Source: Luteimonas aquatica (GTDB taxonomy: Bacteria > Pseudomonadota > Gammaproteobacteria > Xanthomonadales > Xanthomonadaceae). Taken from it: 64,000 nucleotides of DNA. The position numbers and the translations under genes are program-made. Of this stretch, positions 29,065 through 41,170 are shown piece after piece. Positions within the stretch are counted from its first letter, which is position 1, and each line of letters opens with the position of its first letter. A model generated the notes under the pieces. The model ran no database searches and had not been told where the DNA came from. It saw only the letters and a program-made list of their open reading frames with translations. Location of the stretch: the NCBI RefSeq assembly GCF_022662575.1, contig NZ_JALBFU010000002.1, positions 248,001 to 312,000 of the forward strand, in the 5' to 3' direction.

Positions 29065-29207
29065 CGGCCAGTTCGCCAGGCGCGGGTGTCGGCCCGCCCG
29101 TCCTTCCGCCGCGCCGGCCATGTTCCTCGCGTAGAATGCGCCCCGCGGCGCCCGCGCATCGCTCCGCGCTTGCGGTCTTCCATCGGGCATCGCACGATGC
29201 CGATCAT

Positions 29208-29245
29208 GCCGGCATAGCTCAGTTGGTAGAGCAACCGCCTTGTAA
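29208..29245 (+). pseudogene. 5' half of host tRNA-Thr(UGU), interrupted in the anticodon loop
   Basis: Starts GCCGGCATAGCTCAGTTGGT and continues through the D arm, the 5' strand of the anticodon stem (ACCGC) and the loop CTTGTAA, then changes to unrelated sequence. Joined to 41133-41170 it makes a 76-nt tRNA-Thr with anticodon TGT and encoded CCA, in which acceptor (GCCGGCA/TGCCGGC) and anticodon (ACCGC/GCGGT) stems pair fully. A TAGAAT -10 followed by a GC-rich discriminator (29132 onward) may be its promoter. The gene as it stands cannot make a complete tRNA. Confidence 0.9.
29239..29245 (+). other. attL core, CTTGTAA in the tRNA anticodon loop
   Basis: The 7-bp sequence CTTGTAA is the only sequence shared directly at both element ends (29239-29245 and 41126-41132). 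It coincides exactly with the seven-base anticodon loop. A 7-bp overlap within an anticodon loop, flanked by stem inverted repeats, is a known crossover site for tyrosine recombinases. Confidence 0.85.
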
Positions 29246-29364
29246 CTCGGACGCGGTTGTTGTGGTGACCGGCGGAAAGGCTAAGCGCGGCAAGGCTTTA
29301 GGCTCGCCAGCGCGTAGACTGTGGGTCGAGCCGAACACGGTTTGAGCAAAAGAAGTACGACATC

Positions 29365-29440
29365 GCCGCTTTAGCTCAGTTGGTAGAGCAACTGATTTGT
29401 AATCAGTAGGTCGTCCGTTCGAATCGGACAAGCGGCACCA
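29365..29440 (+). tRNA. tRNA-Thr(UGU), element-borne, complete
   Basis: 76 nt with encoded CCA. Acceptor GCCGCTT/AAGCGGC, D arm GCTC...GAGC, anticodon stem ACTGA/TCAGT around TTTGTAA (anticodon TGT), T arm GTCCG/CGGAC with TTCGAAT. All stems pair. It carries G1-C72, C2-G71 and discriminator A, as expected for threonine identity. It differs from the split host gene in acceptor, anticodon and T stems, so it is not a simple duplicate. It lies 119 bp downstream of the severed host half on the same strand and could be transcribed from the host tRNA promoter. Confidence 0.96.
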
Positions 29441-29449
29441 TTCCTGCGG

Positions 29450-29737
29450 TCAGCGCCCCTTCGCGCTGCTCTTTCTGGACCTCGGGCGCAGCCTGGCCGC
29501 GCGCTGCTCCAGGTACTCGCCCAGCAGCCCGAGCGGCTCCACGCCGAGCGCCTCGGCGAACTCGACCAGCTCCACGGCGTCGATCCGACGCTCCCCGCGC
29601 TCGCACTTCGACACGAAGGTCTGCGTATTCCCCAGCCGCTCGGCCAGATCGACCTGCGACACGCCGACCCGCTTGCGGGCCGCCTTCAGGACGGCCAGCA
29701 GTAACTGGTAGTCGGGGTTGTGGGTCGATTGGGCCAT
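29450..29737 (-). CDS. XRE/Cro-type repressor
   Basis: 95 residues with one Cro/C1-type helix-turn-helix (about 15-70): VLKAARKRVGVSQVDLAERL, then NTQTFVSKCERGERRIDAVEL. It ends in a basic tail. Divergent from the next gene across an operator-like region. In phages and satellites such proteins hold the lytic or excision genes off. It starts ten bases after the element's tRNA-Thr on the opposite strand, so the tRNA and repressor transcripts converge. Confidence 0.88.
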   Translation of the reverse strand: MAQSTHNPDYQLLLAVLKAARKRVGVSQVDLAERLGNTQTFVSKCERGERRIDAVELVEFAEALGVEPLGLLGEYLEQRAARLRPRSRKSSAKGR

Positions 29738-29777
29738 CGCGCGGTGACAGGCAGGTCACCGCACGCTAGAGTCCGTA

Positions 29778-29800
29778 TTGGATTAGTCCAAAATAGACTA
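29778..29800. promoter_or_regulatory. overlapping palindromes, putative repressor operator
   Basis: TTGGATTAGTCCAA (29778-29791, 5-bp arms) overlaps TAGTCCAAAATAGACTA (29784-29800, 5-bp arms). A related half-site TAGAGTCC lies at 29767. They sit between the divergent starts of the XRE gene (29737) and the membrane-anchored gene (29828), where an autoregulatory operator is expected. Confidence 0.65.
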
Positions 29801-29827
29801 TTTACTAGCGTTGCTCAGGGGGAGTGC

Positions 29828-30289
29828 ATGAAGCGGATGGGGATTCTTCTGGTCGTCCTGGTGGTCCTGGCCTGGATCGGGTCGAAGGTGGTGCCGCGCA
29901 GCGAGCCCGCGGTTGCCGACACGCCCGCCGCAGTGGCCGAGGCGTCGCAGAAGCAGGCGCAGCATCCAGAGGCGTCGAAGCCCGAGCCGGAGCAACCCAT
30001 GTCGGCGGCCAAGAAGAAGGCGCAGCAGGAGAAGTGGTTCGGCGCCGAGACCATCGTCGCGGCCGAGCGCGCCGTCAGGCGCGAGCTGAAGGACCCGGAC
30101 TCAGCGCACTTCAAGGACGTGCGCGCCAACTACACCGAGGAGTTCGGCATGGTCGCCTGCGGTCGGGTCAACGCCAAAAACGAGTTCGGCGGATACATGG
30201 GTTTCCGGCGCTTCGTGTCGAGCGGCAAGAGCGTGATCCTTGAGGGGCGGGATAACGTCGCCGACGCCTGGGCGGGGGCATGTCTTTGA
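29828..30289 (+). CDS. small membrane-anchored protein, possible superinfection-exclusion or host-modifying factor
   Basis: 153 residues: N-terminal membrane segment (about 4-19, ILLVVLVVLAWIGSKVV), an Ala/Glu/Gln/Pro spacer, a Lys-rich stretch, then a C-terminal domain with VRRELKDPDSAHFKDVRA and ACGRVNAKNEFGGYMGFRRFV. This last pattern recurs in small exported proteins of bacteria and prophages whose function is not established. It faces the periplasm if the single segment is a signal anchor. It lies directly under the repressor-controlled promoter with its own terminator, as a lysogenic-conversion gene would. GGGGAG precedes the ATG. Function is inference from position only. Confidence 0.68.
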   Translation: MKRMGILLVVLVVLAWIGSKVVPRSEPAVADTPAAVAEASQKQAQHPEASKPEPEQPMSAAKKKAQQEKWFGAETIVAAERAVRRELKDPDSAHFKDVRANYTEEFGMVACGRVNAKNEFGGYMGFRRFVSSGKSVILEGRDNVADAWAGACL

Positions 30290-30307
30290 TACGGTCACGA
30301 TGAAGTT

Positions 30308-30334
30308 AAAGAGCCACCGCAAAGGTGGCTCTTT
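30308..30334 (+). terminator. intrinsic terminator after the membrane-anchored gene
   Basis: Perfect 11-bp stem AAAGAGCCACC / GGTGGCTCTTT around GCAAA, continuing into TTTATT. It isolates the upstream gene from the following non-coding stretch. Its stem-loop core is the reverse complement of the terminator at 39699-39725. Confidence 0.88.
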
Positions 30335-30896
30335 ATTCGTGGACAGAACACACGCAGTCAGCGAACTCGCTGGGCATGGCACGTTAAGCCGATACCGCCA
30401 GATGGCTAGCGCATTCTCCTATCTCGCTAGTGGCTCACCGCCGCGCCTCGCCTAGCATCCATCACGCATCAGCGCCGCACGCCACTTTCTAGGGAAGGCT
30501 GGTTGACCTGGCTTATTGGGTAGACCGTCTACGCTCGTATGGTGTCCGTACGTACCGATCTACGGCGAGCATCGGCCGTTCTACACGAGATGTAAGCTCC
30601 TCGCTTCGCCCTGGGTAAAAACCGATCTGTATGATCTCAGCTCTTTCATAGATGCGTGACTCAAAGCACGTTTATAGGGCGAGCCGCGATTGCCAGCCCA
30701 CACTTAGGCCTTCCTATCATCCGGATAGAAGGATGATCTTGTCGGTATGCGTAAACGCATATCGGATAATTCCTTTAAAATCAGCTAGATAGCCGTACTA
30801 CCTTCAGCGACCTTGGACTTCATATGTCTGGTATGACGAGACGCTTGCAGTCGTCGAGCCGCTCATGTACGCTACCATCATCCTGGAGGAACCGTG
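30335..30896. other. 560-bp AT-richer non-coding stretch with several palindromes
   Basis: No gene found. The stretch is clearly lower in GC than the rest of the window. It contains ATCATCC/GGATGAT (30716-30722 with 30731-30737) and the palindrome at 30746-30761. A TTGTCG (30739) and GATAAT (30765) pair has a long 20-bp spacing. It ends at the GGAGG ribosome site of the next gene. It probably regulates the replication module, or holds a small RNA; neither can be shown from sequence. Confidence 0.5.
30746..30761. promoter_or_regulatory. 16-bp palindrome TATGCGTAAACGCATA
   Basis: 7-bp perfect arms (TATGCGT/ACGCATA) with a 2-bp centre, lying just before a GATAAT -10-like hexamer and about 135 bp before the next start codon. 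Position and symmetry suggest an operator for a dimeric regulator; the AlpA-like and XRE proteins of this element are candidates. Confidence 0.5.
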
Positions 30897-31721
30897 ATGA
30901 GCGACGAACTGGACAACTCAGACGAAGCCGACGCCCTCGCGACCAACGGTGGGGCGCAGGCTAGCCCGCGCCCGCGCATGAACAAGCTGGTCAAGGTGAT
31001 CCCTACCGACCGGGTGAGCTTCGACAAGCAGATGAGCGTACTGCGCGCATACGCCGCAGCCAGTGGGCCCGAGAAGAAAGCTGTGTCGAACGACGAGGTT
31101 TCTGCCGTGATTTCGGGGTTGGCGGCGTCGTCGATCTCGCTCTGCAACCCCTACCTCAGCGACTGTGGCTTCCTCATCGCTGAGGGGCGCAAGCAGCGGC
31201 CGGTCGACGCGGTGTTCGACTACCTGCACGCATACGAGTGGAACCCCGACACGGCTGCGACCAAGCTGCGCGGAATTATGGCGGAGACGTGGGCGGCCAA
31301 GGAATTGCTGCCGAAACTGGGTTTCCGTCAACTGAGTAAGGACGAGGCCATCCAGTTCCTGGCGGACGCGTCGAAAGCCCAGAAGGGGCATCGGCGGAAT
31401 CTGGAGACCGTGCTGGACTACCTGGGCACCACCGGCGTCGTGAACGTCGACGGCAACACTGTCTCGAAGGTCTCGGGTGCGCCGCTCGGTAACGATCCGC
31501 CGCCCCCGCCGCCAGCGGCAGATGACAAACACAAGGGCGGTCAGCGTACTCCGAAGTCGGACGACGTGGAGCACTTTACGATCCCGATCCCCGGCAAGGA
31601 GGCTGCGGTCATCACGGTGCCGAAGAATCTGGACGCCGATGACTGGGACATGCTGAGCACGATGATCGGCACCTATATCGCGCGTATGCGCAAGGACAGC
31701 ACCAAGGGGAGTGCGTCATGA
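30897..31721 (+). CDS. hypothetical protein with possible winged-helix domain
   Basis: 274 residues, unrecognised. The N-terminus is acidic, with SPRPRMNKLVKVIPTDRVSF after it. Residues about 45-185 are helical with alternating short strands (DEVSAVISGLAASSISLCNP, KLGFRQLSKDEAIQFLAD, GVVNVDGNTVSKV), suggesting tandem winged-helix folds. A Pro-rich linker (seven Pro in a row-like cluster) leads to a small C-terminal part with FTIPIPGKEAAVITVPKNL. GGAGG is 7 nt from this ATG; a GTG three bases earlier is too close. It is the first gene after the long control region, upstream of the tRNA and primase. Confidence 0.6.
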   Translation: MSDELDNSDEADALATNGGAQASPRPRMNKLVKVIPTDRVSFDKQMSVLRAYAAASGPEKKAVSNDEVSAVISGLAASSISLCNPYLSDCGFLIAEGRKQRPVDAVFDYLHAYEWNPDTAATKLRGIMAETWAAKELLPKLGFRQLSKDEAIQFLADASKAQKGHRRNLETVLDYLGTTGVVNVDGNTVSKVSGAPLGNDPPPPPPAADDKHKGGQRTPKSDDVEHFTIPIPGKEAAVITVPKNLDADDWDMLSTMIGTYIARMRKDSTKGSAS

Positions 31722-31787
31722 GGAGATAGCGTGCCTGCGCGCCACCGCCCACCGCGAGTGACCGGGCTTTCCGTGCGCACAGGCCAG

Positions 31788-31854
31788 AAACAAAGCGGGG
31801 TGAGGCCCTTGGAAGCCCCACCCCGCGTGGAAAGCGAGTCGCTCACCTTTGTTT
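31788..31854 (+). ncRNA. potential structured RNA just upstream of the leucine-like tRNA
   Basis: Nested inverted repeats: AAACAAAG (31788-31795) with CTTTGTTT (31847-31854), and GCGGGGTG (31795-31802) with CACCCCGC (31819-31826). It ends 9 bp before the tRNA at 31864 on the same strand, so it could be the tRNA leader, a separate small RNA or a terminator of the upstream gene. No family is recognised. Confidence 0.4.
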
Positions 31855-31863
31855 GTACTGCAA

Positions 31864-31948
31864 GCCCACGTGGCGAAACTGGTAAACGCAGCGGTCTTTA
31901 AAACCGACATCCGGCCAGGATTTGCGGGTTCGAGTCCCGCCGTGGGCA
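31864..31948 (+). tRNA. class II (leucine-like) tRNA with predicted anticodon UUA, possible ochre suppressor
   Basis: 85 nt. Acceptor GCCCACG/CGTGGGC with discriminator A; D arm GCG...CGC with AAACTGGTAAA loop, typical of tRNA-Leu; long variable arm closed by ATCC/GGAT; T arm GCGGG/CCCGC with TTCGAGT. The anticodon stem can only be CGGT/ACCG plus a G-A apposition, placing CTTTAAA as the loop and TTA as anticodon, which reads UAA. A normal tRNA-Leu(UAA) would have the loop shifted by one base. No CCA is encoded (ends ATT), unlike the two tRNA-Thr genes. It could also be a degenerate pseudogene. Confidence 0.75.
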
Positions 31949-32338
31949 TTCAATTCTAGCATTTTGATGCCACCTGTGCAGCACCTCGCCCGTCCAGGGA
32001 CGGTGCTGCCTCCGCAGGGGGTAGGGGACCTCGACGCACCGCCTGATACTAGATCGGCCTAGACCGAACCGAATGACACGGGCTCATCGGGGAAACCGGG
32101 CGAAGTGCTGGTATGCGCGCGAGAACCATCCGGGTACAGTGTGGTTAATCGGGCTGCGGACCAGACCAGCCCGAGGATCGTCGGCAATGGCTATGGCGAT
32201 CAGAAGTGCTTTCGGTGGCAAGAACAGCCGAGGCCAGCCCAGCGTGACGACCTGGGCAGCCCATCTCTGCGACGCACAGCAGGCCCAGTCCCCCGGCGGC
32301 ATTCCGCCGTCGCGGGAACTTGGAGATGGAGCACGCCT

Positions 32339-32638
32339 GTGACTACCCCCGAACCCATGAAGCTCACCCCCGAGGAGCTGGCCGAGCTGCACGCGCTTCC
32401 CGACGAGGCGATGGTCAAGCCCGAGGAGGCCGCCGCGCTCTTGCGGCTCAAGCGCGCTACGTTGTCGTGGTACCGCTGCCACGGCGGCGGGCCGAAGTAC
32501 TCCCGCGTCGGGCCGAAGCTGATCCGCTACCGCATGGGCGACCTGCGCGACTACGCCAGGGGCCAGCCGATGAGCGAGGGCGTCCGCAAGGTCGCCGCCG
32601 CGATGCTGGCCGCCCGCATCGCCAACGCGGAGGGCTGA
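32339..32638 (+). CDS. AlpA-like helix-turn-helix regulator
   Basis: 99 residues. The helix-turn-helix is of the excisionase/AlpA (HTH_17) kind: MVKPEEAAALLRLKRATLSW, then YRCHGGGPKYSRVGPKLIRYRMGDLRDYA, the usual recognition helix plus wing. It starts GTG with GGAG 7 nt upstream; an in-frame ATG at 32357 is possible. Such proteins activate integrase/excision or replication genes in P4-like and PICI-like satellites. It lies 3 bp before the primase gene, so they are coupled. Confidence 0.82.
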   Translation: MTTPEPMKLTPEELAELHALPDEAMVKPEEAAALLRLKRATLSWYRCHGGGPKYSRVGPKLIRYRMGDLRDYARGQPMSEGVRKVAAAMLAARIANAEG

Positions 32639-32641
32639 ACG

Positions 32642-35008
32642 ATGGCCGGAGAAGAAAACGCCCGCGTGCAAGGCGGGCGCAAGGTTACAACTGACCAGGA
32701 GACGGAGCTTGCCGAAGCTCACAGGGTCAATGATGCCGAGCGGCACCCCGCCGATACGCCATCATTCGACGACGCCGAGTTCCTGGTCCGCGCCGGCTAC
32801 GAGTTGGTCCCCCTGAGGGGTGGCAGCAAGGCGCCGAGGGACAAGGACTGGCCGAACCGCCGCTACGACCCCGTCGAAGTGTTGGCGGAGACACGGGCCC
32901 GCGGCGGCAACCTGGGCGTGCGGCTGCGCGCTGCCGACCTGGTCGTGGACGTAGACCCGCGCAACGGTGGCGACGCCTCGCTCCGCGCGTTGGTCGCCGA
33001 AACCGGCCTGGACCTGGATCGCTGCCCACACGTCGCGACGGGTGGCGGCGGGCATCACTACTACCTTCGCAAGCCGGAAGGGCTGGCCACCGTCGGCAGG
33101 CTGCCGCAGTTCCCCGGCATCGACTTCAAGAAGCACGGCGGGCAGGTCGTCGCGCCAGGCTCTGTGCACCCCGAGACCGGGTGCCGGTACGAGTCGGAGT
33201 TCTGGATGCTCGGCCCCGACGAGACACCGGGCGCGCCGCCCGCGCTGCTCGAACTTCTGCGCGTCCGCCAGGTCGAGATGCCCGAGGGGACCGGCGACAC
33301 CGACAGGTGGGGCGAGATCACGCCGGAGCAACTCGCCGCCGCGCTGGCCGACCTGCCGCCCGACGACTACGGCGAGGGCACGCACGACGAATGGTTCCAG
33401 CTCATGTGCGCCTGCCACCACGCGACCGCGGGCGCGGGGCGCGAGGAGTTCATCGCCTGGAGCACGCAGGCCGCTGGATACGGCGACCACGCGGAGTCCA
33501 TCGGCTACCGCTGGGACTCGCTCGCGTCCCGCACAGGCCAGGGCGGCAGGCCGACCACGGTGCGCCACCTGCACCAGGTGCTCGCCAAGCACGGCGCGGG
33601 CGTCCCGCACGCCGCGCCGGAGGACGACTTCGACGCCTACGAAGACCCAGCCGAAATCGGCCGGGGAGTGGACGACGCGACGCTGCGCCAGCCGCCGAAG
33701 CTTGAGGGCAAGGCAGCAATCCTGGAGGAGATGAACGCCCAGCACTGTGTCGTCATGGAGAACGGCAAGTTCCGCGTCTTCACAGAGGAGTTCGACCCGG
33801 TACTCGGCAGGCACTTCTACCAGCGCTCCACTAAGGAGGACTTCCAGAACCTCTACTGCAACAGCTTCGTCGAGCAGGTGAACGACAGGCCGACGACGCG
33901 GGCGCAGTTCTGGCTCAAGCACCCGCAGCGGCGCCAATACAAGGGCGTCATCTTCGACCCGTCAGGCGACCACGACGGATGGCTGAACCTGTGGCGCGGC
34001 TGGGCCGTCGATCCGGCGCCGGGTGACTGGTCGCTGCTGGACCAGCTCATCCGCGAGGTGCTGACCGATGGCGACCCGCAGGGCTACCGCTACGTGCTGA
34101 ACTGGATGGCCGCGATGTTCCAGCGTCCCTCGGAGGCGGCCGAGGTGGCGATCGCCTTCAGGGGCGCGAAGGGCACGGGCAAGGGCACGCTCGGCCGCGT
34201 ACTCCAGCACATCGCCGGGGCACACGGGTTGCACATCAGCTCGCCGGAGCACATCACCGGCCGGTTCAACTCGCACCTGCAGAACTGCGTCTGCCTGTTC
34301 GCCGACGAGGCCTTCTGGGCGGGCGACAAGTCGGGCGAGGCGAAGCTGAAGGCGTTGGTGACCGAGCCGACTGTCGCCTATGAGGGCAAGGGCCGCGACG
34401 CCGTGATGGGCAAGAACCTGATCCACATCGTCATGGCCTCCAACTCCGACTGGGTCGTGCCCGCGGGCCTGGACGGCGAGCGGCGCTTCGCGGTGTTCGA
34501 GGTGAACGACTCGCGCAAGGACGACCACGCGTTCTTCAGCGCGCTGAACCGCCAGCTAGACGAGGGAGGCCGCGCCGCCTTCCTGCACGACATGCTCGCG
34601 CGCGACATCCGGGGATGGCACCCGCGCAACGAAATCCCGCAGAACAGCGCGCTTGCCGACCAAAAGCTGCGCGGCATGGAACCCGAGTTCGAGTGGTGGC
34701 ACTCGTTGCTATACGTGGGTGAGCTGCCCGGCTTCGGTGATGACAGGGACTGGGATGCCGGCGCGATCGAGCTGGACAAGGACGAGTTCTATGACAGCTA
34801 CCTGGCCTTCGCGCGCAGTCGCACGAAGCGTCCCAGAACGTTATCTGGCCTGGCAAAGGTCCTGCTCACCAAGGTGGGCGTGACGAAGCGGCAGATAAGG
34901 AGCGGTACCCGCAAGGGCCGGTGGGTGTACGTGATCCCCGCGCTCGACCAGGCTCGAAACAGGTTTGCCGCGATCGTGGGAGCAAACCCAAAGCAGCTAT
35001 GGGACTGA
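32642..35008 (+). CDS. primase-polymerase / SF3 helicase replication protein
   Basis: 788 residues. N-terminal AEP-type primase-polymerase domain (about 40-210) with the metal pair Asp103/Asp105 (LVVDVDPRNGG), GGGGHHYY and GIDFKKHGGQVVAPGSVH. A PriCT-like helical region follows (about 225-320). The C-terminal helicase (about 480-690) has Walker A GAKGTGKG (508-515), Walker B CLFADEAF (Asp555-Glu556) and the sensor MASNSDWVVP; a winged helix ends it. It would open and prime the element's origin. Same organisation as replication proteins of P4-like phages and satellites. GGAGG precedes the ATG. The terminator and repeat cluster follow directly. Confidence 0.92.
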   Translation: MAGEENARVQGGRKVTTDQETELAEAHRVNDAERHPADTPSFDDAEFLVRAGYELVPLRGGSKAPRDKDWPNRRYDPVEVLAETRARGGNLGVRLRAADLVVDVDPRNGGDASLRALVAETGLDLDRCPHVATGGGGHHYYLRKPEGLATVGRLPQFPGIDFKKHGGQVVAPGSVHPETGCRYESEFWMLGPDETPGAPPALLELLRVRQVEMPEGTGDTDRWGEITPEQLAAALADLPPDDYGEGTHDEWFQLMCACHHATAGAGREEFIAWSTQAAGYGDHAESIGYRWDSLASRTGQGGRPTTVRHLHQVLAKHGAGVPHAAPEDDFDAYEDPAEIGRGVDDATLRQPPKLEGKAAILEEMNAQHCVVMENGKFRVFTEEFDPVLGRHFYQRSTKEDFQNLYCNSFVEQVNDRPTTRAQFWLKHPQRRQYKGVIFDPSGDHDGWLNLWRGWAVDPAPGDWSLLDQLIREVLTDGDPQGYRYVLNWMAAMFQRPSEAAEVAIAFRGAKGTGKGTLGRVLQHIAGAHGLHISSPEHITGRFNSHLQNCVCLFADEAFWAGDKSGEAKLKALVTEPTVAYEGKGRDAVMGKNLIHIVMASNSDWVVPAGLDGERRFAVFEVNDSRKDDHAFFSALNRQLDEGGRAAFLHDMLARDIRGWHPRNEIPQNSALADQKLRGMEPEFEWWHSLLYVGELPGFGDDRDWDAGAIELDKDEFYDSYLAFARSRTKRPRTLSGLAKVLLTKVGVTKRQIRSGTRKGRWVYVIPALDQARNRFAAIVGANPKQLWD

Positions 35009-35013
35009 GCTGG

Positions 35014-35307
35014 GCACAGCTTCAGAACCGTGCGCCGCACACTCGGCGCACGGCTTTTTTCTTGCTCGTTTCGGTTTACGGATCATGCGCTTAGGCCTCG
35101 GTGCACGACACGCCCGAGGTTTTCGGCGCCGAAATCATTTTTAGGACTTTCGGCCCCTATCAGGTCCAGCCGAAGCGCTCGACAGTTGTGAGAGGCGGTC
35201 AATTCGTCGTCGGTGAGAAATAAGCTGTGCATGCTGTGCAAGTTGTTCGTAGATCAATAAAGCTAAGTAAAACAAAGAAAAACAACGCACAGCTTCGTGC
35301 ACAGCTT
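35014..35307. other. putative replication origin: GCACAGCTT repeats flanking an AT-rich tract
   Basis: GCACAGCTT occurs at 35014-35022, 35287-35295 and 35299-35307, and inverted (AAGCTGTGC) at 35222-35230 with a degenerate copy at 35232-35239. Between the inverted pair lies 35241-35286, an almost G/C-free run (AATAAAGCTAAGTAAAACAA within it). Repeats around an AT-rich unwinding element directly downstream of a primase-helicase gene is the usual origin layout in PICI- and P4-type satellites. The surrounding 35061-35603 holds no convincing gene. Confidence 0.72.
35028..35060 (+). terminator. intrinsic terminator after the primase gene
   Basis: Perfect 10-bp stem CCGTGCGCCG / CGGCGCACGG around CACACT, followed by CTTTTTT. 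Confidence 0.93.
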
Positions 35308-35603
35308 CCGAATCGCCGTTGAGAACGCGGTGCAGCGCGCCGGATGCGGGAGTCGGTGTGGACTGAGCCTGGACGAGCGCGTCGGACGTGGCGACCTTCA
35401 AGGGAACGCGGCCGAGTCGCCGTCCGACCTCGCGCCAGACCTCTCCCTCGCACGCGTGGACCGTCCCGGAGCCGTGGCCCGCTAATCAGCAGGCAGAAAG
35501 CGGGGCCACTCCAAGCCGATGACCCCGAAGGAGAAACGCTGGCTTCCTGCGCGCGCCTAACACGACACGATCACGCCGTAAGCCATTTTCTCGGGAGCCG
35601 GCC

Positions 35604-36116
35604 GTGGCCGCAAAGAAGTTCACCCCCGAGGTGCAGGAGGTCTTCCTCCAGGTGCTCGAGGACACCGCGTCGCCGAAGCAGGCGGCCCAGGCGTGCGGCA
35701 TCTCCAGGCGCCTCGCGTTCGAGTACAAGCAGAACGACGTCGAGTTCCGCACCCGCTGGGAGAAGGCCATCGACGTCGCGATGGACGCGCTCCTGGACGA
35801 GGCGTACCGCCGCGCCTGCCTCGGCGTGGAGGAGCCCGTCATCTACCAGGGGCAGCTCTCCACGACGCGCGACCCGCAGACCGGCGACGAGAGGCCGCTC
35901 ACCGTCAGGAAGCACAGCGACAGGCTCCTGGAGGTGCTGCTCAAGTTCCGCTACGGCGACCAGATGGCGGACAGGCTGCGCGTCAGGGTCGAGGACACGG
36001 GCCTGTCGGCCGACGCCCTGCTGGCGATGCCCGCCGACGAGCGCGCGCAGCTCGTGGCGCTCCTGGGCAAGTACAACGCGGCGCGGCCGCACGACGAGGA
36101 CGGCGACGATGAGTGA
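35604..36116 (+). CDS. terminase small subunit-like protein
   Basis: 170 residues. The N-terminal helix-turn-helix SPKQAAQACGISRRLAFEYK and the following DVEFRTRWEKAIDVAMDALLDEAYRRA match phage small terminase-type proteins, which recognise packaging (pac/cos) sites. The LLEVLLKFRYGDQMADRLRV segment is also common in this group. It begins with GTG after CGGGAG. No large terminase is present, so, as in PICIs, it would redirect a helper phage's terminase to satellite DNA. That role is inferred. Confidence 0.78.
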   Translation: MAAKKFTPEVQEVFLQVLEDTASPKQAAQACGISRRLAFEYKQNDVEFRTRWEKAIDVAMDALLDEAYRRACLGVEEPVIYQGQLSTTRDPQTGDERPLTVRKHSDRLLEVLLKFRYGDQMADRLRVRVEDTGLSADALLAMPADERAQLVALLGKYNAARPHDEDGDDE

Positions 36117-36354
36117 GAAGCTGACGGTGGCCGAGGCGCTCGCCAAGGCCGAGCAGATCGACGTGATGCTGGGCGCGATCGAGGGCACTGCGCCCGATGC
36201 GGTCCAGGCGATGGGCGGGCGCGACGCCCTGGCCCGGCGCAGCGAGATGACCTGCCTCGGCCCGGTGCCGCGCCTGGACCAGGACGAGTGGGAGCGCATG
36301 TCGCTGGAGTACGAGGACAGGCGCGAGCATGGCAGCGTCAACCGGGGCCACTAA
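36109..36354 (+). CDS. small hypothetical protein overlapping the TerS-like gene
   Basis: 81 residues, acidic, mostly helical (LTVAEALAKAEQIDVMLGAI). Starts within the end of the TerS-like gene (8-nt overlap), indicating translational coupling. Ends with TAA. No family recognised. Coupling suggests a packaging- or capsid-related accessory role, but nothing in the sequence shows it. Confidence 0.6.
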   Translation: MSEKLTVAEALAKAEQIDVMLGAIEGTAPDAVQAMGGRDALARRSEMTCLGPVPRLDQDEWERMSLEYEDRREHGSVNRGH

Positions 36355-36775
36355 CGGGCAGCCGGTCGCCGTGGAGGTGGGCGGGGTGCGATACCCCTCC
36401 GCCAGGTCGGCGGCCCAGGCGCTCGGGATCGGGTACAGCGCCGTGACGGCGCGCTGCCACGACCCAAGGCACCTGAATTACCGATGGCTCGGCGCCACGC
36501 CGGGCAGGCGCCAGGTGCACGACCCATCCACGGTGCGGATGGGCCGGGACGTAGCCGAGCCCTCCCGGTGGGCATTCGACGGGTGCGTGCGACGCGCGCC
36601 CGTGGTGGACACCAACTTCGACCCGCCGCGCCTGGTGCGCCGCGTGGGCTGGGTCGGGTGCATGACGTGCGGCAGGCCGCACTGGTCCGACGACGTCGCG
36701 CGGGCGCGCATGTGCGTCGAGTGCGGGGGCGCGGGCGGTTGGCCCGTCGGCGCGCGCCCGGACGGGGACCACTGA
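36329..36775 (+). CDS. hypothetical protein with NUMOD1-like motif and CxxC zinc-finger pair
   Basis: 148 residues. The N-terminal GVRYPSARSAAQALGIGYSA with VTARCHDP resembles NUMOD1/HTH modules found in homing endonucleases and phage proteins. The C-terminus has CMTCGRP and CVECGG, a likely zinc site. It overlaps the preceding gene by 26 nt in another frame, and its ribosome site would be GAGGACAGG. It probably binds nucleic acid. No HNH or GIY-YIG catalytic motif is seen, so nuclease activity is not claimed. Confidence 0.6.
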   Translation: MAASTGATNGQPVAVEVGGVRYPSARSAAQALGIGYSAVTARCHDPRHLNYRWLGATPGRRQVHDPSTVRMGRDVAEPSRWAFDGCVRRAPVVDTNFDPPRLVRRVGWVGCMTCGRPHWSDDVARARMCVECGGAGGWPVGARPDGDH

Positions 36776-36817
36776 CATTCGATCGGGGAGCGGCGCGACG
36801 CCAAGCCCATGAACCGC

Positions 36818-36842
36818 AAGCCGCCGAGACGGCGGCGGCTTT
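36818..36842 (+). terminator. weak hairpin, possible terminator
   Basis: AAGCCGCCG / CGGCGGCTT (36818-36826, 36833-36841) around AGACGG, followed only by TG. Position after the coupled gene group and before the next ribosome site suggests termination or attenuation, but the T tract is missing. Confidence 0.4.
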
Positions 36843-37005
36843 GAGGGAAACACGTCCGGAGAACGATGGCGTTCGCGCCCAACGCTCCGCGACACATTGC
36901 AGGCGTATCCGGTCAGCGCACAGGCGCGCGTGACCCGCACCTCGGCTTGGTGCACGCGCTCGTGACAGGCGACCGGAGGACCAACCTCACAGGAGCCAGC
37001 GAGCC

Positions 37006-37728
37006 ATGAAGATCGAACTCAGCGACACCCCCCTCCTCAGCACCCAGCAGATCGGCGAGCTCGCCTCGACCCTGGACCTGCTGCACAAGCGCACCCTCGT
37101 CGCGATCGAGCGCCTGAACAAGGACGTCGCGACCCGCAAGCAGCAGATCGCCGCGCGCTGGAAGAGCGCCCCCGGCATCGGCGCGGCCGACGTGGCGCGC
37201 TTCGCCGAGCACGAGACGCTCGCCAGCGTCCGCGAGATCAAGGACAACTCCAAGGCCGAGCTGGACAAGATCATGAAGGAGGCCGGCGCGCCGCACGCGC
37301 AGCTGGTCGGCCAGCGCCAGTTCTACGACTCCCCGGCCAAGGTCCTGGCCCGCGCGGCCCTGGGCGACCCGAAGCGCACCGAGTACCTCCAGCAGCTCCA
37401 GCACGCCGGCCCGGCCGAGCTCGGCCACATGGCCCAGGTCGCCGTCGGCACGCGCAACGTCGCCCTGGCCTCGGCCGTGCTGTCCCTGATCGACCGCCTG
37501 CCCACCAAGGACCGCCCGGTCGGCCCGGTGGAGCTGGCGACGGCGATGAAGCAGGACGACTTCCTGAAGGTGCAGGAGTACATCAAGCTGGGCGACGCGC
37601 GCCTCCAGGGCATCCTGGTCGCCATCCGCGCCTGGTACGCCGGCAAGGCCAACCCGCTCAGCTCGGTGCAGCTCGCCATGCGCGAGCGCGACATCGACCA
37701 CGACCTGATCGGGGGCGACGATGCGTAA
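37006..37728 (+). CDS. hypothetical helical protein of the element
   Basis: 240 residues, soluble, predominantly helical, with a likely coiled-coil region at about 15-60 (STLDLLHKRTLVAIERLNKD). No cysteines noted and no family recognised. GGAG lies before the ATG. Ends TAA, with the next start ATG overlapping by 8 nt. Size and composition would fit a structural or scaffolding-like phage protein, but this is not supported by any motif. Confidence 0.6.
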   Translation: MKIELSDTPLLSTQQIGELASTLDLLHKRTLVAIERLNKDVATRKQQIAARWKSAPGIGAADVARFAEHETLASVREIKDNSKAELDKIMKEAGAPHAQLVGQRQFYDSPAKVLARAALGDPKRTEYLQQLQHAGPAELGHMAQVAVGTRNVALASAVLSLIDRLPTKDRPVGPVELATAMKQDDFLKVQEYIKLGDARLQGILVAIRAWYAGKANPLSSVQLAMRERDIDHDLIGGDDA

Positions 37729-37993
37729 GCTGGCCCACTACTCGATCGACCACCCGGTGGCCATCGCGCTGTCCGGCCTGGTCGGCGCCCTCCGCACTGG
37801 CGACGACCTCCTCGCGTCCCTGGCCGAGCGGGCCGAGGCCGCGGGCGTCCGCCCGTACTCCGAATACTTCGACGACGCGGCGCGCCTCGCGGGCATGCCG
37901 TACTGCCGCGCGCTCGACCTGTACGTGGACCGCGAGACAAAGCGCCGGGCCGACCGGCTGGGATACGGGCAGGCGCACCTCGCGCTCTGCTGA
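37721..37993 (+). CDS. small hypothetical protein coupled to the preceding gene
   Basis: 90 residues. Begins MRKLAHYSIDHPVAIALSGL; has one central acidic region and a basic C-terminus (DRETKRRADRLGYG). Start overlaps the upstream stop. No family recognised. A strong terminator follows at 38060, closing this transcription unit. Confidence 0.55.
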   Translation: MRKLAHYSIDHPVAIALSGLVGALRTGDDLLASLAERAEAAGVRPYSEYFDDAARLAGMPYCRALDLYVDRETKRRADRLGYGQAHLALC

Positions 37994-38059
37994 CCGGGCA
38001 AACGCGGCCGGGCTGGTTGGGTGCGCAGAGGGGCGACGGGTTGCCCCGGCCGTGTTTCG

Positions 38060-38092
38060 AGGGGGATGTCCTGAGGGCATCCCCTTCTTTTT
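38060..38092 (+). terminator. intrinsic terminator at the end of the rightward element operon
   Basis: GGGGATG / CATCCCC (38062-38068 with 38078-38084) followed by TTCTTTTT. It separates the rightward genes from the leftward HEPN-like gene. Confidence 0.88.
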
Positions 38093-38127
38093 CATGGGCT
38101 TAGGGACCTTCGCGTCCAGACAGCCAG

Positions 38128-39069
38128 TTAGGGGGCTTTTGCGAACCCGCCGCCACCCAGGCGCGCGACTGCTACCCTGCTATCAGAGATCGTCTCGTCG
38201 TACCGCTCCACGAATGTGGCGAACTTGCCTCGATCATTGTTGTAGCTCTCTATCCAGCGAGCCTGCGCCTGAGCGAAAGCCTGCACGAGCCCGAGGAAGT
38301 CAAAGTAGTAGACGCCTCCAACATCGCGCGGGATTTCCGGCGCATCTCCAACTCTGAACGATATCCGGCGAACCTGTTTCTTTCGCACCTTCGATGAACT
38401 GAGATTCGTCATATGAAGCAGGCCGTTCCGCAGTTCCCACAACTCCGCAGCGGTTATGCCGAGTGGTGCTAGCTCGCAATACTCCTCCATCCATTTCACG
38501 AAGGCTCCCCGGTCGTCTCCGTACTCGATGTACGCGAGGCTGTCGATGCAGCAGACAAGAAGTTTCATTGCGGAGACATAGAGGCCCGCGTTGAAGGTCA
38601 ACTTGATCGCCAAGAAGTAGTCATCGTGGATGAGCTGGGAGAAATTGATTCCCTCGTCACTGGCGTACTTCCGCAGCCAATCCACCATGGTGCCGGGTTC
38701 CCCCAACTTTTCCGAAACATCGTTCACGTCCAGATCCCCAAGCTCGGAGCTGTAATTGAAGTGGGCCTTCCCATTTAGAACGGGCGTTGACACGAAAAGG
38801 GGCGACGCACCGGCACCCGCGTGTACAAACAACTCGTCGTAAAGGCAATGCCCCTCTCCAAGCCGGCACCTTGCGTTGTATTCGGACCTGGCGAACGGCT
38901 TCGACAGACGCACCTTCTTGGCGATGGCAAGGTCCGCGTCCACTCGTGCCCGTAAAAGGTCGATACCTTCTTGATCCGATCCCTCGTGGGCATGGGCGGT
39001 GTAGCCGGCCACGGAACATACGTCCTTGGCGTCGAAGAGTAGAAAGACGTTGTATATCTGTTCTGCCAT
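38128..39069 (-). CDS. HEPN-like protein with RN-x3-H motif, candidate defence/RNase gene
   Basis: 313 residues. C-terminal half is helical and contains ELWELRNGLLHMTN with Arg214, Asn215 and His219, the Rx4-6H active-site pattern of HEPN ribonucleases, where RN is the usual form. The N-terminal half (about 1-110) is alpha/beta with a Cys pair, unrecognised. Base composition and codons are less GC-rich than neighbouring element genes, suggesting separate acquisition. It sits alone on the minus strand next to the integrase end, the usual cargo position in satellites. Toxicity or anti-phage activity is inferred from the motif and place only. An in-frame extension to 39708 is antisense to another gene and rejected. 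Confidence 0.7.
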   Translation of the reverse strand: MAEQIYNVFLLFDAKDVCSVAGYTAHAHEGSDQEGIDLLRARVDADLAIAKKVRLSKPFARSEYNARCRLGEGHCLYDELFVHAGAGASPLFVSTPVLNGKAHFNYSSELGDLDVNDVSEKLGEPGTMVDWLRKYASDEGINFSQLIHDDYFLAIKLTFNAGLYVSAMKLLVCCIDSLAYIEYGDDRGAFVKWMEEYCELAPLGITAAELWELRNGLLHMTNLSSSKVRKKQVRRISFRVGDAPEIPRDVGGVYYFDFLGLVQAFAQAQARWIESYNNDRGKFATFVERYDETISDSRVAVARLGGGGFAKAP

Positions 39070-39092
39070 GCAGGGCACCGGATTCTCGTAGA

Positions 39093-39101
39093 GGGGGGGG
39101 G
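39093..39101. repeat. G9 homopolymer tract in a divergent promoter region
   Basis: Nine G residues lie between the HEPN-like start (39069, leftward) and the next gene's start (39163, rightward). Such tracts vary by slipped-strand mispairing; in a promoter region they can switch expression by altering spacing. Confidence 0.85.
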
Positions 39102-39162
39102 CTCCCGGACCCAGCGAATCGCGACCTAATGCGCCTACAACCCCAACGTAGGAGTGGACGTG

Positions 39163-39675
39163 ATGCTGGACAAAATGAGCATGAAGGAGCTGCTGGCCCT
39201 GCACAACCGCGTCGCCGACAAGCCCGCAGGGCCCAAGACCTTCGCGACCCGGGCCAAGCTCGTCGCCCGAATCAAGCAGGTCGCGGCCGACAAGAACCTC
39301 GACCTGGCCTCGTTCGGGCAGCCGAAGAAGCCCAAGGCGACCGCGCAGCACGCAGAGCCGAAGGCCGAAGCCACCGAGACGCCAGAAGCGACCGAGAAGA
39401 AGCCCCAAGGCAAGGGCATCGGCGCGCTCGCCCGTGCGATCCTGATGGACCCGGCGGGCCACCCGCACGCGCTCATCGCCGAGATGGTCAACGTGCAGAT
39501 CAAGGGCGCTGCCGCCACCGCCAAGTCGGTTCGCTGGTACGCCAACGACATGCGCAAGAAGGGCGTCGAGGTGCCGCCGCGTCAGAAGCACCACCCGGCC
39601 GACATGGACGAGGAGCAGTCGGCGGAGGCCCTGCGCACCGTGCGCGTGGTCGAGCCCGCGCCGTCCGACGGCTGA
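39163..39675 (+). CDS. small basic DNA-binding-like protein
   Basis: 170 residues. The N-terminal MSMKELLALHNRVADKPAGP with KLVARIKQVAADKN looks like a SAP- or Rho-N-type helical nucleic acid-binding motif. A Pro/Glu/Ala linker leads to a C-terminal part ALARAILMDPAGHPHALIAE with VRWYANDMRKKGVEVPPRQ, resembling a winged-helix. Frequently seen near phage replication or packaging genes; function unknown. ATG chosen for GGAG at 8 nt; a GTG nine bases earlier overlaps that site. Confidence 0.62.
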   Translation: MLDKMSMKELLALHNRVADKPAGPKTFATRAKLVARIKQVAADKNLDLASFGQPKKPKATAQHAEPKAEATETPEATEKKPQGKGIGALARAILMDPAGHPHALIAEMVNVQIKGAAATAKSVRWYANDMRKKGVEVPPRQKHHPADMDEEQSAEALRTVRVVEPAPSDG

Positions 39676-39698
39676 CGCGTTCTCCCGCCGTGTACGAG

Positions 39699-39725
39699 AA
39701 AGGGCCACCTTTGCGGTGGCCCTTT
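39699..39725. terminator. bidirectional terminator between rightward gene and integrase
   Basis: AAAGGGCCACC / GGTGGCCCTTT around TTTGC, with CATTTCAT after it. The gene to its left runs rightward and the integrase runs leftward into it. Its core is the reverse complement of the hairpin at 30308-30334. Confidence 0.85.
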
Positions 39726-39765
39726 CATTTCATCGCCTTGTGGTGCGTCGCGTGCCGACTGCGGA

Positions 39766-40953
39766 TCAGGTGGCCAGCCTCGGTGGCCACGTCCCGGGCT
39801 CGTGGACGAGGCCCAGTGCGTCGAGGATGTAGCGCGATGCCTTCTCTTGGTGCTCGCGCAGGTGGTCGAGCGACGGGTGCAGGTAGCCCATCGTTACGCC
39901 GCCGCTCGACGCGCTGTGGTTAAGCAGGAACCGCAGCTCTAGCAGCGGCACGCCAGCCTGCAACGCGAGGGACGCGTACGCGTGCCGCAGCGCGTGGCCG
40001 GTGAGGTCGCCTAGCTCGTGCTGCTGGACCTCGGCCACCCGGCCCGATGCCGAGTCGGCCGGGAACAGGTAGGGCGTCTTGCGCCTCACGCCGTCGGCGT
40101 TCGCCTCGCGGTGGGCGAGCAGGTCGGCGAGCGCCGAGGACAGCGGCAGGTCGAACTTTTTGGACGAGCCGCCCTTCGGGTTCGGGACGTGCAGGCGGCC
40201 GTCGCCGAGCTCCGCGCGTCGTGCCTCGCACGACGCCGTCCGGCGCATGCCCGACAGCAGCATGAACAGTTGGAGGTCGCGGCGCACCGGGTTGCCCAGC
40301 GACAGCACCGCGTTGCCCCATGCCCTGAGCTTGTCGGGGCTGGCGTCCACCTCGCGACGGCGCATGCCGTTCATGTCCACGTTGCCCACCGGGTTCGGCG
40401 GCAGGTCGGGGAACTGGCGCAGCGCGCGGTTGTAGACCGAGCGCAGGACCCGCATGACGTTGTCGCCCGTGGTCGCGCCGCTTTTTGCTGTGAGCTTGCG
40501 GTGCCGCTCGCGCACGCCGGCCCGGTCCGCGCCGATCTCGGCCAGCGGCCTGTCGAGCCAGTCCTTGAGGTAGTAGGTGACGTGGTACTCGTAGCCGCTT
40601 CGGGTCTTGTCTGCCAGCCGCCGGGAGTTGAGGTGCAGGTCCAGCCCCTCCCGCAAGGTGATGCCGCGCGCCCGGGCCCTGCGGCGCTCCTCGTTCGGGT
40701 TGGTGCCGCCCCGCATGCCGACCAGGGTCTGCCTCGCGAGGTCGCGGGCCTGCTTGGCGTCCATCGCTGGGTGGTCGCCCAGCTTCGTCCGGACCTGCCG
40801 GCCGTTGACGAGGGACTGGACGTAGAAGCTGCGCTTGGTGGCGGTGACGATGAGGTAGAACCCCCTCATCTCGGTGTCGGCGTACAGGACCGACTTACCC
40901 GGCTCGGGCCGGGGCGCCCTCTCGACGAGGGACTGGGTGATCTTCGACTTCAT
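39766..40953 (-). CDS. int: tyrosine-family site-specific integrase
   Basis: 395 residues. N-terminal DUF4102-like arm-binding region, a central SAM-like core-binding domain (about 100-190) and the catalytic domain with Arg237 (LLSGMRRTAS), Lys in NPKGGSSKK, His320-x-x-Arg323 (TGHALRHAYAS), His346 (LLNHSAS) and nucleophile Tyr357 (TMGYLHPS). All five catalytic positions are recognisable, so it is probably active. It reads inward from the right junction, 172 bp from attR. It would carry out insertion at the tRNA-Thr anticodon loop. Confidence 0.95.
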   Translation of the reverse strand: MKSKITQSLVERAPRPEPGKSVLYADTEMRGFYLIVTATKRSFYVQSLVNGRQVRTKLGDHPAMDAKQARDLARQTLVGMRGGTNPNEERRRARARGITLREGLDLHLNSRRLADKTRSGYEYHVTYYLKDWLDRPLAEIGADRAGVRERHRKLTAKSGATTGDNVMRVLRSVYNRALRQFPDLPPNPVGNVDMNGMRRREVDASPDKLRAWGNAVLSLGNPVRRDLQLFMLLSGMRRTASCEARRAELGDGRLHVPNPKGGSSKKFDLPLSSALADLLAHREANADGVRRKTPYLFPADSASGRVAEVQQHELGDLTGHALRHAYASLALQAGVPLLELRFLLNHSASSGGVTMGYLHPSLDHLREHQEKASRYILDALGLVHEPGTWPPRLAT

Positions 40954-41066
40954 GCTAGCTCCGTGGGTTGCGGGGCCACGGCCCGAACACGCTTTCGCAC
41001 CACAAGGTGCCGTGTTCAGTCGCGCCGTGCGCTCCCTCGAAAGCCATTAAGTCGCAGTGCTATCCT

Positions 41067-41085
41067 CTTGTAAGCTGCCGGCAGA
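41067..41085 (+). other. secondary att-like sequence near the right junction
   Basis: CTTGTAAGC (41067-41075) repeats the first nine bases of the right tRNA half and is followed directly by TGCCGGCA, which equals the tRNA's acceptor 3' strand. Together it looks like a shortened copy of the tRNA 3' half with the T arm deleted. It may be an old att remnant or an accessory integrase site; inverted TTACAA (41094-41099) and TTGTAA (41127-41132) flank the 26 bp to its right. Confidence 0.5.
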
Positions 41086-41125
41086 CCATCCGATTACAAA
41101 TCATGGCAAGGCTTGCAACGCCTGA

Positions 41126-41132
41126 CTTGTAA
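41126..41132 (+). other. attR core, CTTGTAA
   Basis: Second copy of the 7-bp crossover sequence, identical to attL core at 29239-29245. To its right the host tRNA continues with GCGGT; to its left is element DNA not resembling a tRNA 5' half. Confidence 0.85.
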
Positions 41133-41170
41133 GCGGTAGGTCCCCAGTTCGAATCCGGGTGCCGGCACCA
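41126..41170 (+). pseudogene. 3' half of host tRNA-Thr(UGU)
   Basis: Anticodon loop CTTGTAA, stem strand GCGGT, T arm CCCAG/CCGGG with TTCGAAT, acceptor TGCCGGC, then ACCA. It lacks acceptor 5' strand, D arm and anticodon 5' strand, which lie 11.9 kb to the left. The A52-C62 apposition in the T arm is kept from the original gene, so it is not necessarily decay. Confidence 0.9.

What the first reader, a model, noticed from the sequence alone, without database searches (positions are those of the whole stretch)
29208..41170. Satellite-like element splits a tRNA-Thr in its anticodon loop and brings a replacement tRNA
Seen: 29208-29245 and 41133-41170 join into a complete 76-nt tRNA-Thr(UGU) with every stem matched, and the shared 7 bp is the anticodon loop itself. 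Elements that integrate in tRNA genes usually carry the 3' part and restore the gene; here neither junction does. A complete but different tRNA-Thr(UGU) lies 119 bp inside the left end, downstream of the severed half on the same strand. Inference: the element destroys the host gene and takes over decoding of ACA and possibly all NCA/NCN threonine codons with its own tRNA, transcribed from the host promoter, making loss of the element costly (an addiction-like outcome).
Basis: partly seen in the sequence, partly recalled or inferred. Interest (0 to 1): 0.93.

Follow-up and report, generated by a model that had tools for sequence, protein, structure and literature searches.

The report
Satellite swaps out host threonine tRNA
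A 12-kb phage-satellite-like element has cut a bacterium's only detected tRNA gene for the threonine codon ACA in two and carries a complete substitute just inside its left end, likely switched on by the host gene's own promoter, so that the cell would come to depend on the element.

Summary
An 11.9-kb element (29246-41132) splits tRNA-Thr(UGU) at the 7-bp anticodon loop. Neither junction rebuilds it, and a complete, different tRNA-Thr(UGU) lies 119 bp inside the left end. It is the only UGU-anticodon tRNA found in the 99.98%-complete draft host genome.

It is not a one-off. Of 23 loci with this integrase, 16 integrated elements (Xanthomonas, Stenotrophomonas, Luteimonas, Zoogloea, Bordetella and others) split a tRNA-Thr and carry a complete one of the same anticodon (8 UGU, 8 CGU). 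One more virus contig shows the joined attP form. Three restore their target classically, two of them with integrases 97.7-98.7% identical to replacers; three are unresolved.

The principle is known: 'tRNA-dependent lysogeny' of actinobacteriophages (PMC10865867). New here are the satellite-like carrier, the fixed cassette behind an arm-like motif about 90 bp from the crossover, and no promoter-like signal above shuffles in 16 of 16 spacers, against a host promoter signal upstream in 13 of 16. The substitute is therefore probably expressed by read-through from the host promoter only after integration.

'Addiction' needs correcting. Precise excision would rebuild the host gene; dependence becomes fixed when the stranded 3' half decays, as in 3 of 8 UGU cases.

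The parts
29132..29137 (+). TAGAAT, -10-like hexamer of the host tRNA-Thr gene
   Evidence: best host-upstream site in the window (40 of 200 shuffles as good, so weak here); TAGAAT is the best upstream -10 in 12 of 16 elements
29208..29245 (+). severed 5' half of host tRNA-Thr(UGU)
29239..29245 (+). left copy of the 7-bp crossover core CTTGTAA (anticodon loop), attL
29246..29364 (+). 119-bp spacer (left arm of the attachment site); no promoter-like signal above shuffles
29335..29348 (+). ACACGGTTTGAGCA, conserved arm-type-like motif starting 90 bp past the core
   Evidence: (up to 2 mismatches allowed): at +90 in 14 of 16 replacement elements, +89 and +103 in the other two
29365..29440 (+). 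carried complete replacement tRNA-Thr(UGU)
29451..29478 (+). terminator-like hairpin and T-rich tail after the carried tRNA
29450..29737 (-). HTH_3 regulator, 95 aa
29720..30289 (+). 189-aa protein of unknown function (phrog_2320-like)
30894..31721 (+). 275-aa protein, no family match
31864..31948 (+). Leu-like class II tRNA with anticodon UUA (side finding)
32321..32638 (+). HTH_17 helix-turn-helix protein
32642..35008 (+). PrimPol + PriCT_2 + DUF5906 primase-helicase, 788 aa
35604..36116 (+). small terminase subunit (phrog_4044)
36329..36775 (+). 148-aa protein, no match in four libraries; homologues in many relatives
37006..37728 (+). 240-aa protein of unknown function, conserved in the family
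38128..39141 (-). 337-aa protein of unknown function (weak phrog_12390); homologue seen only in G432 and G438
39154..39675 (+). 173-aa protein of unknown function, conserved in the family
39766..40953 (-). tyrosine integrase, 395 aa (Arm-DNA-bind_3 + Phage_integrase)
40985..40996 (+). GAACACGCTTTC, arm-type-like motif near the right end
41126..41132 (+). right copy of the 7-bp core, attR
41133..41170 (+). stranded 3' half of host tRNA-Thr(UGU), intact in this genome

Best explanation
This is a phage-satellite-like element whose tyrosine integrase most likely inserts it into the anticodon loop of the host tRNA-Thr gene, destroying that gene, while a complete tRNA-Thr with the same anticodon lies just inside the element's left end and is predicted to be transcribed from the captured host promoter. 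Shown by the sequence: the split, the 7-bp core, the intact substitute, no second copy found, and recurrence with matched anticodon. Inferred: (1) the element's arm-type integrase site occupies the first ~104 bp past the crossover, so the tRNA sits directly behind it, as near to the host promoter as attP allows; (2) the circular form has no promoter reading into the tRNA, so the tRNA is switched on by the integration that makes it necessary; (3) precise excision rebuilds the host gene; (4) once the stranded 3' half decays, the cell can no longer lose the carried tRNA, even after the element stops moving.
For: 16 of 16 replacement elements with both ends read carry the anticodon they destroy (8 UGU, 8 CGU), with four distinct CGU tRNA sequences; three of the 16 (G432, G437, G447) have their ends on two contigs. 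In 14 of 14 host genomes the carried gene is the only complete Thr tRNA of that anticodon listed; the 12 whose rows were all printed agree, apart from extra 3'-half fragments in G439 and G441. Arm motif at +89, +90 or +103 and tRNA start at +110 to +133 in 16 of 16. Spacer promoter score reached by at least 25 of 200 shuffles in 16 of 16; host upstream score reached by at most 10 of 200 in 13 of 16. attP joint without host halves in a virus contig. Carried UGU tRNA differs by 0.7% on average between elements, the spacer by 7.4%. Two restorers share 97.7-98.7% of the integrase with replacers, so only the left-end cassette need differ. G443 (3.7-kb remnant, integrase matched over 297 of 395 residues) and G446 (integrase with a stop codon) both have a decayed 3' half and an unchanged carried tRNA.
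Against: No expression or viability data. The promoter test is a simple E. coli-type score against base shuffles in GC-rich genomes; the window's own host promoter is weak (40 of 200 shuffles as good), and G448v and G442 are not significant. The virus contig G452v has a promoter-like site (1 of 200 shuffles as good) in front of its tRNA, so at least one member may express it alone. Carried tRNAs pair fully in 11 of 14 checked; those of G441, G442 and G445 have one or two non-standard pairs. G433 has a decayed 3' half but a full-length integrase frame. The host genome is a draft in 52 contigs; in G439 an extra 3'-half match ends at a contig edge. The UGU group is one clade, so its 8 matches are not independent. 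G446 is about 42 kb with phage genes, so the module is not confined to satellites. Wobble by the UGU tRNA could cover ACG (recalled), so CGU replacement may be helpful rather than vital.
Confidence: 0.78

Rival explanations
1. Same replacement, but the carried tRNA has its own promoter and is expressed whether or not the element is integrated, as in mycobacteriophage Fionnbharth.
For: Fionnbharth's tRNA has a strong promoter of its own (PMC10865867); the G452v spacer has a promoter-like site, 1 of 200 shuffles as good.
Against: 0 of 16 integrated elements have a spacer promoter score above shuffle expectation; the consensus scan finds none in 29050-29560, though that scan misses the host promoter too.
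Confidence: 0.2
2. The second tRNA is a leftover of an older insertion or of a host tandem tRNA pair, and the split is a side effect of a broken restoring island.
For: Restoring relatives exist with nearly the same integrase.
Against: The tRNA sits at a nearly constant place behind the arm motif in 16 of 16 elements and travels with the attP form. Five same-genus empty sites carry one uninterrupted gene downstream of a SPOR-gene homologue.
Confidence: 0.04
3. The carried tRNA mainly serves the element or its helper phage (codon supply, or a decoy against tRNA-cutting defence), and replacing the host gene is secondary.
For: Such roles are proposed for phage tRNAs in general (discussed in PMC10865867).
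Against: The anticodon follows the destroyed gene in 16 of 16; three restoring relatives share integrase, primase and terminase genes, and ARAGORN finds no Thr tRNA beyond the rebuilt target in the stretches held; ACA is rare in the element, 8 of 123 Thr codons in 11 genes; no promoter signal for expression in the free state.
Confidence: 0.08
4. Assembly artefact: the split and second tRNA are misjoined contigs.
For: Four genomes have the two ends on different contigs (G432, G437, G438, G447).
Against: 13 of 16 replacement elements lie on one contig in separate assemblies, with the same architecture.
Confidence: 0.01

Closest known systems
tRNA-dependent lysogeny of actinobacteriophages (Fionnbharth, cluster L, Gaia and others; Guerrero-Bustamante and Hatfull 2024, PMC10865867)
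   Same: Tyrosine integrase, short core in a host tRNA gene, no rebuilt tRNA at attL or attR, element-borne tRNA of the same isotype, restorers and replacers among related integrases.
   Different: Carrier is a ~12-kb satellite-like element in gamma- and beta-proteobacteria; tRNA-Thr target cut at the anticodon loop; tRNA is collinear with and directly behind the severed half, with no detectable promoter, whereas Fionnbharth's overlaps a protein gene elsewhere and has its own promoter; natural decay of the stranded half seen here.
tRNA substitution by phage-related sequences in Sinorhizobium meliloti (PMC11476347, passages read)
   Same: Inactivated host tRNA replaced by an isoacceptor in the inserted element, similar to genes of other species.
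   Different: Alphaproteobacterial prophages and islands; in the passages read the attachment sites lie at 3' ends of tRNA genes; those passages describe no fixed cassette or promoter analysis.
Classical tRNA-gene islands (Islander, PMC4383910, passages read)
   Same: Tyrosine integrase, anticodon-centred crossover, displaced fragment at the far end.
   Different: Those islands carry the tRNA fragment that restores the gene; here the target stays broken.
Phage-inducible chromosomal islands / phage satellites (features recalled)
   Same: Size, integrase, HTH regulators, primase, small terminase subunit, no structural genes recognised in the window's element.
   Different: Induction by a helper phage is unknown; the integration module also occurs in a ~42-kb phage-like element (G446).

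Membership tests
tRNA-dependent lysogeny | tyrosine integrase with attB inside a host tRNA gene | tested here: met
tRNA-dependent lysogeny | short common core (8-17 bp in the published cases); tRNA not rebuilt at attL or attR | tested here: met
   7-bp core in the window, one below the published range; both junctions broken
[quoted passage not shown]
   16 of 16 elements with both ends
tRNA-dependent lysogeny | disrupted host tRNA is non-redundant | tested here: met
   one UGU tRNA among 48 tRNA matches; draft genome
tRNA-dependent lysogeny | carried tRNA is required for viable integration | not testable with these tools
   needs deletion or an integration plasmid
tRNA-dependent lysogeny | element is a temperate phage forming lysogens | tested here: not met
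   no capsid or tail family among eleven proteins scanned; satellite-like, so it works like the system rather than being a phage lysogen
tRNA-dependent lysogeny (Fionnbharth design, not defining) | tRNA has its own promoter | tested here: not met
   0 of 16 spacers above shuffles, but G452v has one; prediction only
phage satellite of PICI type | integrase, regulators, primase, optional terS, no structural genes (recalled definition) | tested here: met
phage satellite of PICI type | excision, replication and packaging induced by a helper phage | not testable with these tools
   only an attP-joined contig was seen
classical restoring tRNA island | attP carries the tRNA fragment that rebuilds the gene | tested here: not met
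   met only by relatives G435, G438 and G444

The most novel reading that the evidence does not exclude
A family of phage satellites carries a promoterless but complete tRNA gene that is silent in the free element and is switched on only by the host tRNA promoter that the same integration event steals; the satellite thereby takes over decoding of a threonine codon, and decay of the stranded host half then fixes a mobile element as an indispensable part of the translation machinery.
Probability: 0.55. Interest if true: 0.75.

Novelty: new variant of a known kind. Interest (0 to 1): 0.6.

Why it matters
It extends tRNA-dependent integration from actinobacterial phages to a satellite-like family in gamma- and beta-proteobacteria, and suggests a simple way to make integration safe: put the replacement gene behind the target's own promoter. 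The family holds restorers and replacers with nearly identical integrases, so the open question of how one strategy turns into the other can be tested directly. The decayed lineages show how a mobile element could become needed for decoding. Tools that look for islands by a restored tRNA plus a fragment would probably misread these elements.

Tried and rejected
Rejected: a rebuilt tRNA at the left junction (Rfam 22.8 bits, below cutoff; fold z -1.01, 29 of 200 shuffles as good). Rejected as general: that the carried tRNA is disguised from the integrase by a changed anticodon stem; G445 carries the same stem and loop as the gene it destroys. Origin of the carried UGU tRNA: the best hit outside the host among 369 genomes of the class is 92% identical, so the donor is unknown. 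PADLOC gave nothing and NCBIfam only sub-cutoff hits for the proteins scanned. Exact search of the UUA tRNA in IMG/VR: none. My first Thr-tRNA pattern had one N too many and was repeated corrected; my first UUA-tRNA pattern was also misspaced and was repeated corrected, with the window as positive control. Paper searches for a satellite version found none in this library; subscription journals and most preprints are not covered.
Full report
WHAT IS THERE. The window comes from a genome of 3.83 Mb in 52 contigs, 99.98% complete. Its genus includes G024, whose integrase lies at the same place on a contig of the same length as that of Luteimonas sp. BDR2-5. At 29208-29245 lies the 5' half of a tRNA-Thr(UGU) gene and at 41133-41170 its 3' half; both ends share CTTGTAA (29239-29245, 41126-41132), which is the whole anticodon loop. 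The joined 76 nt equal an uninterrupted gene in 65 of 395 family genomes. Five same-genus empty sites, of five examined, have that gene uninterrupted with a homologue of the window's upstream SPOR-domain gene before it (one hit is only 23 residues, at a contig end; SPOR by Pfam). The joined gene has one A-C mismatch in the T stem, shared with those intact copies, so 'every stem matched' is nearly but not quite right. A different, complete tRNA-Thr(UGU) lies at 29365-29440. Among the 48 tRNA matches of the genome no other is UGU: ARAGORN named the anticodon of 46, and the other two, a degenerate pair on contig C3, have other loops. CGU and GGU genes occur once each.

WHAT KIND OF ELEMENT. Between the cores: a tyrosine integrase at the right end, two HTH proteins, a PrimPol/DUF5906 primase, a small terminase subunit and several unknown proteins. 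Eleven proteins scanned gave no capsid or tail family (ten of them also against NCBIfam and six against PADLOC). That is a satellite-like gene set.

A FAMILY. One scan of the 84,980-species collection with the integrase gave 16 loci; IMG/VR gave 6 more. In a family sample, 8 of 395 genomes hold the integrase at E <= 1e-100, so it is patchy. With the window that makes 23 loci. Sixteen are replacement elements with both halves read: UGU in the window, G432, G433, G434, G443, G446, G447 and virus contig G448; CGU in G436, G437, G439, G440, G441, G442, G445 and virus contig G450. In three of these (G432, G437, G447) the two ends lie on different contigs. One virus contig (G452) has the right end joined directly to the left end with no host half between them, followed by a complete tRNA-Thr(CGU): an attP form. 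Three restore their target: G435 and G438 (the latter across two contigs) at tRNA-Thr(CGU), G444 at tRNA-Asn. Three virus contigs (G449, G451, G453) were read at one end only.

MATCHED ANTICODONS. In 16 of 16 the carried tRNA has the anticodon of the gene that was cut. The UGU members form one clade (100/100 support), so they count as one lineage. The eight CGU members have four distinct tRNA sequences and G452 a further one, so the body was exchanged while the anticodon stayed. The sequence carried in G441 and G445 equals the host gene cut in G442. In 14 of 14 host genomes one search lists exactly one complete Thr tRNA of the cut anticodon, the carried one. One search agrees for the 12 whose rows were fully printed, with two extra 3'-half fragments: G441 (no complete tRNA there) and G439 (cut off by a contig end, so open). 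Carried UGU tRNAs differ by 0.7% on average, the spacer in front by 7.4%, the 200 bp behind by 36.8%. Carried tRNAs pair fully in 11 of 14 checked; G441, G442 and G445 have one or two non-standard pairs.

GEOMETRY AND PROMOTER. A motif like ACACGGTTTGARCA (two mismatches allowed) starts 90 bp past the core in 14 of 16 replacers, at 89 and 103 in the other two (the latter spacer is 13 bp longer). The carried tRNA starts 110-133 bp past the core, directly behind it. Two of three restorers have the motif at 100-102. A similar motif lies 142-144 bp before the right core in 13 of 15 elements examined. I infer that these are integrase arm sites, so the tRNA is placed as near the host promoter as attP allows. 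A simple -35/-10 score finds no spacer above shuffles (0 of 16 with <= 10 of 200 shuffles as good; lowest 25), but finds the host upstream region above shuffles in 13 of 16. Exceptions: the window (40 of 200), G448 (54 of 200, only 88 bp available) and G442 (56 of 200). G452 has a promoter-like site of its own (1 of 200). A stricter consensus scan finds no promoter at all in 29050-29560, host side included, and a terminator-like hairpin after the carried tRNA (hairpins are also visible behind the CGU tRNAs). Read-through from the host promoter is therefore the best prediction, not a measured fact.

REVERSIBILITY AND LOCK-IN. In the window both halves are intact, so precise excision would rebuild the host gene; the addiction reading is too strong here. 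In G433 the stranded half has lost one base; in G443 it has two mismatched anticodon-stem pairs; in G446 a T-stem pair is broken that the intact gene of another Stenotrophomonas, G437, keeps. G443 is a 3.7-kb remnant whose integrase is matched only over residues 1-297 of 395, and the G446 integrase has a stop codon where the window protein has the presumed nucleophile tyrosine ('nucleophile' recalled). The G433 integrase frame is full length. In all three the carried tRNA equals the group consensus. Of seven CGU joins checked, G441, G442 and G445 have one or two non-standard pairs; those of G442 and G445 recur in other family tRNAs and look native, that of G441 was not checked against an empty site.

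SWITCHING STRATEGY. Integrases of the two CGU restorers are 97.7-98.7% identical to those of the five replacers compared, and the tree puts them among replacers, with many open forks. The switch therefore probably lies in the left-end cassette, not in the integrase. In Vulcaniibacterium (G444) another element with a distant integrase (24% identical) and a SmaI-like restriction-modification pair also splits tRNA-Thr(CGU) and carries its own CGU tRNA 14 nt past the junction. None of the window element's eleven proteins finds a match in it at E 1e-4. That is a second appearance of the arrangement.

AGAINST WHAT IS KNOWN. The principle was described in 2024 as tRNA-dependent lysogeny of actinobacteriophages, with experimental proof that the phage tRNA is needed (PMC10865867; abstract, introduction, first Results sections, 'Other actinobacteriophages' section, Discussion and passages seen). 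Its Discussion mentions Lactobacillus prophage Lj965 as a possible case. Substitution was also reported for S. meliloti (PMC11476347, passages; PMC12429752, passages). Fionnbharth's tRNA has its own promoter. Nine searches of this library listed no satellite version and none that I could recognise for this bacterial family. I file the finding as a new variant of a known kind: it works like tRNA-dependent lysogeny but fails the 'temperate phage' feature.

LIMITS. All evidence is comparative sequence. The genome is a draft, promoter scoring is crude, and independence within clades is limited.

Noticed in passing
31864-31948: A Leu-like class II tRNA with anticodon UUA, which would read the stop codon UAA; no encoded CCA. 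Its anticodon-arm pattern is in none of the 188 loci held and the exact sequence is not in IMG/VR; the best-ranked phage hit is a tRNA-Leu(UAA). A possible ochre suppressor or a degenerate tRNA-Leu.
   Followed up: partly
41067-41075: A second CTTGTAAGC, 59 bp before the right core; a similar stretch occurs in the attP form of G452.
   Followed up: no
L146-L148 (G446): The Stenotrophomonas element is about 42 kb, with a T7-type terminase match, a weak tail-fibre match, DnaB and a second integrase gene among ten proteins scanned: the same integration module on a phage-like element.
   Followed up: partly
L175 3103-13358 (G444): A different ~10-kb element with a SmaI-like endonuclease and DNA methylase splits tRNA-Thr(CGU) and carries a CGU tRNA 14 nt past the left junction.
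   Followed up: partly
L176 (G441 contig C53, 282562): A second copy of the stranded 3' half lies 52 kb from the element: probably another element in tandem at the same tRNA gene.
   Followed up: no
L178 (G433 contig C50, 117193-118304): A complete tRNA-Thr(CGU) followed about 1.1 kb on by a 3' tRNA-Thr(CGU) half: looks like the scar of a small restoring element.
   Followed up: no
L169, L180 (G449): The virus contig with this integrase also holds transposition genes of the kind found in Mu-like phages (recalled) and a head maturation protease: a second phage inside or beside the element.
   Followed up: no
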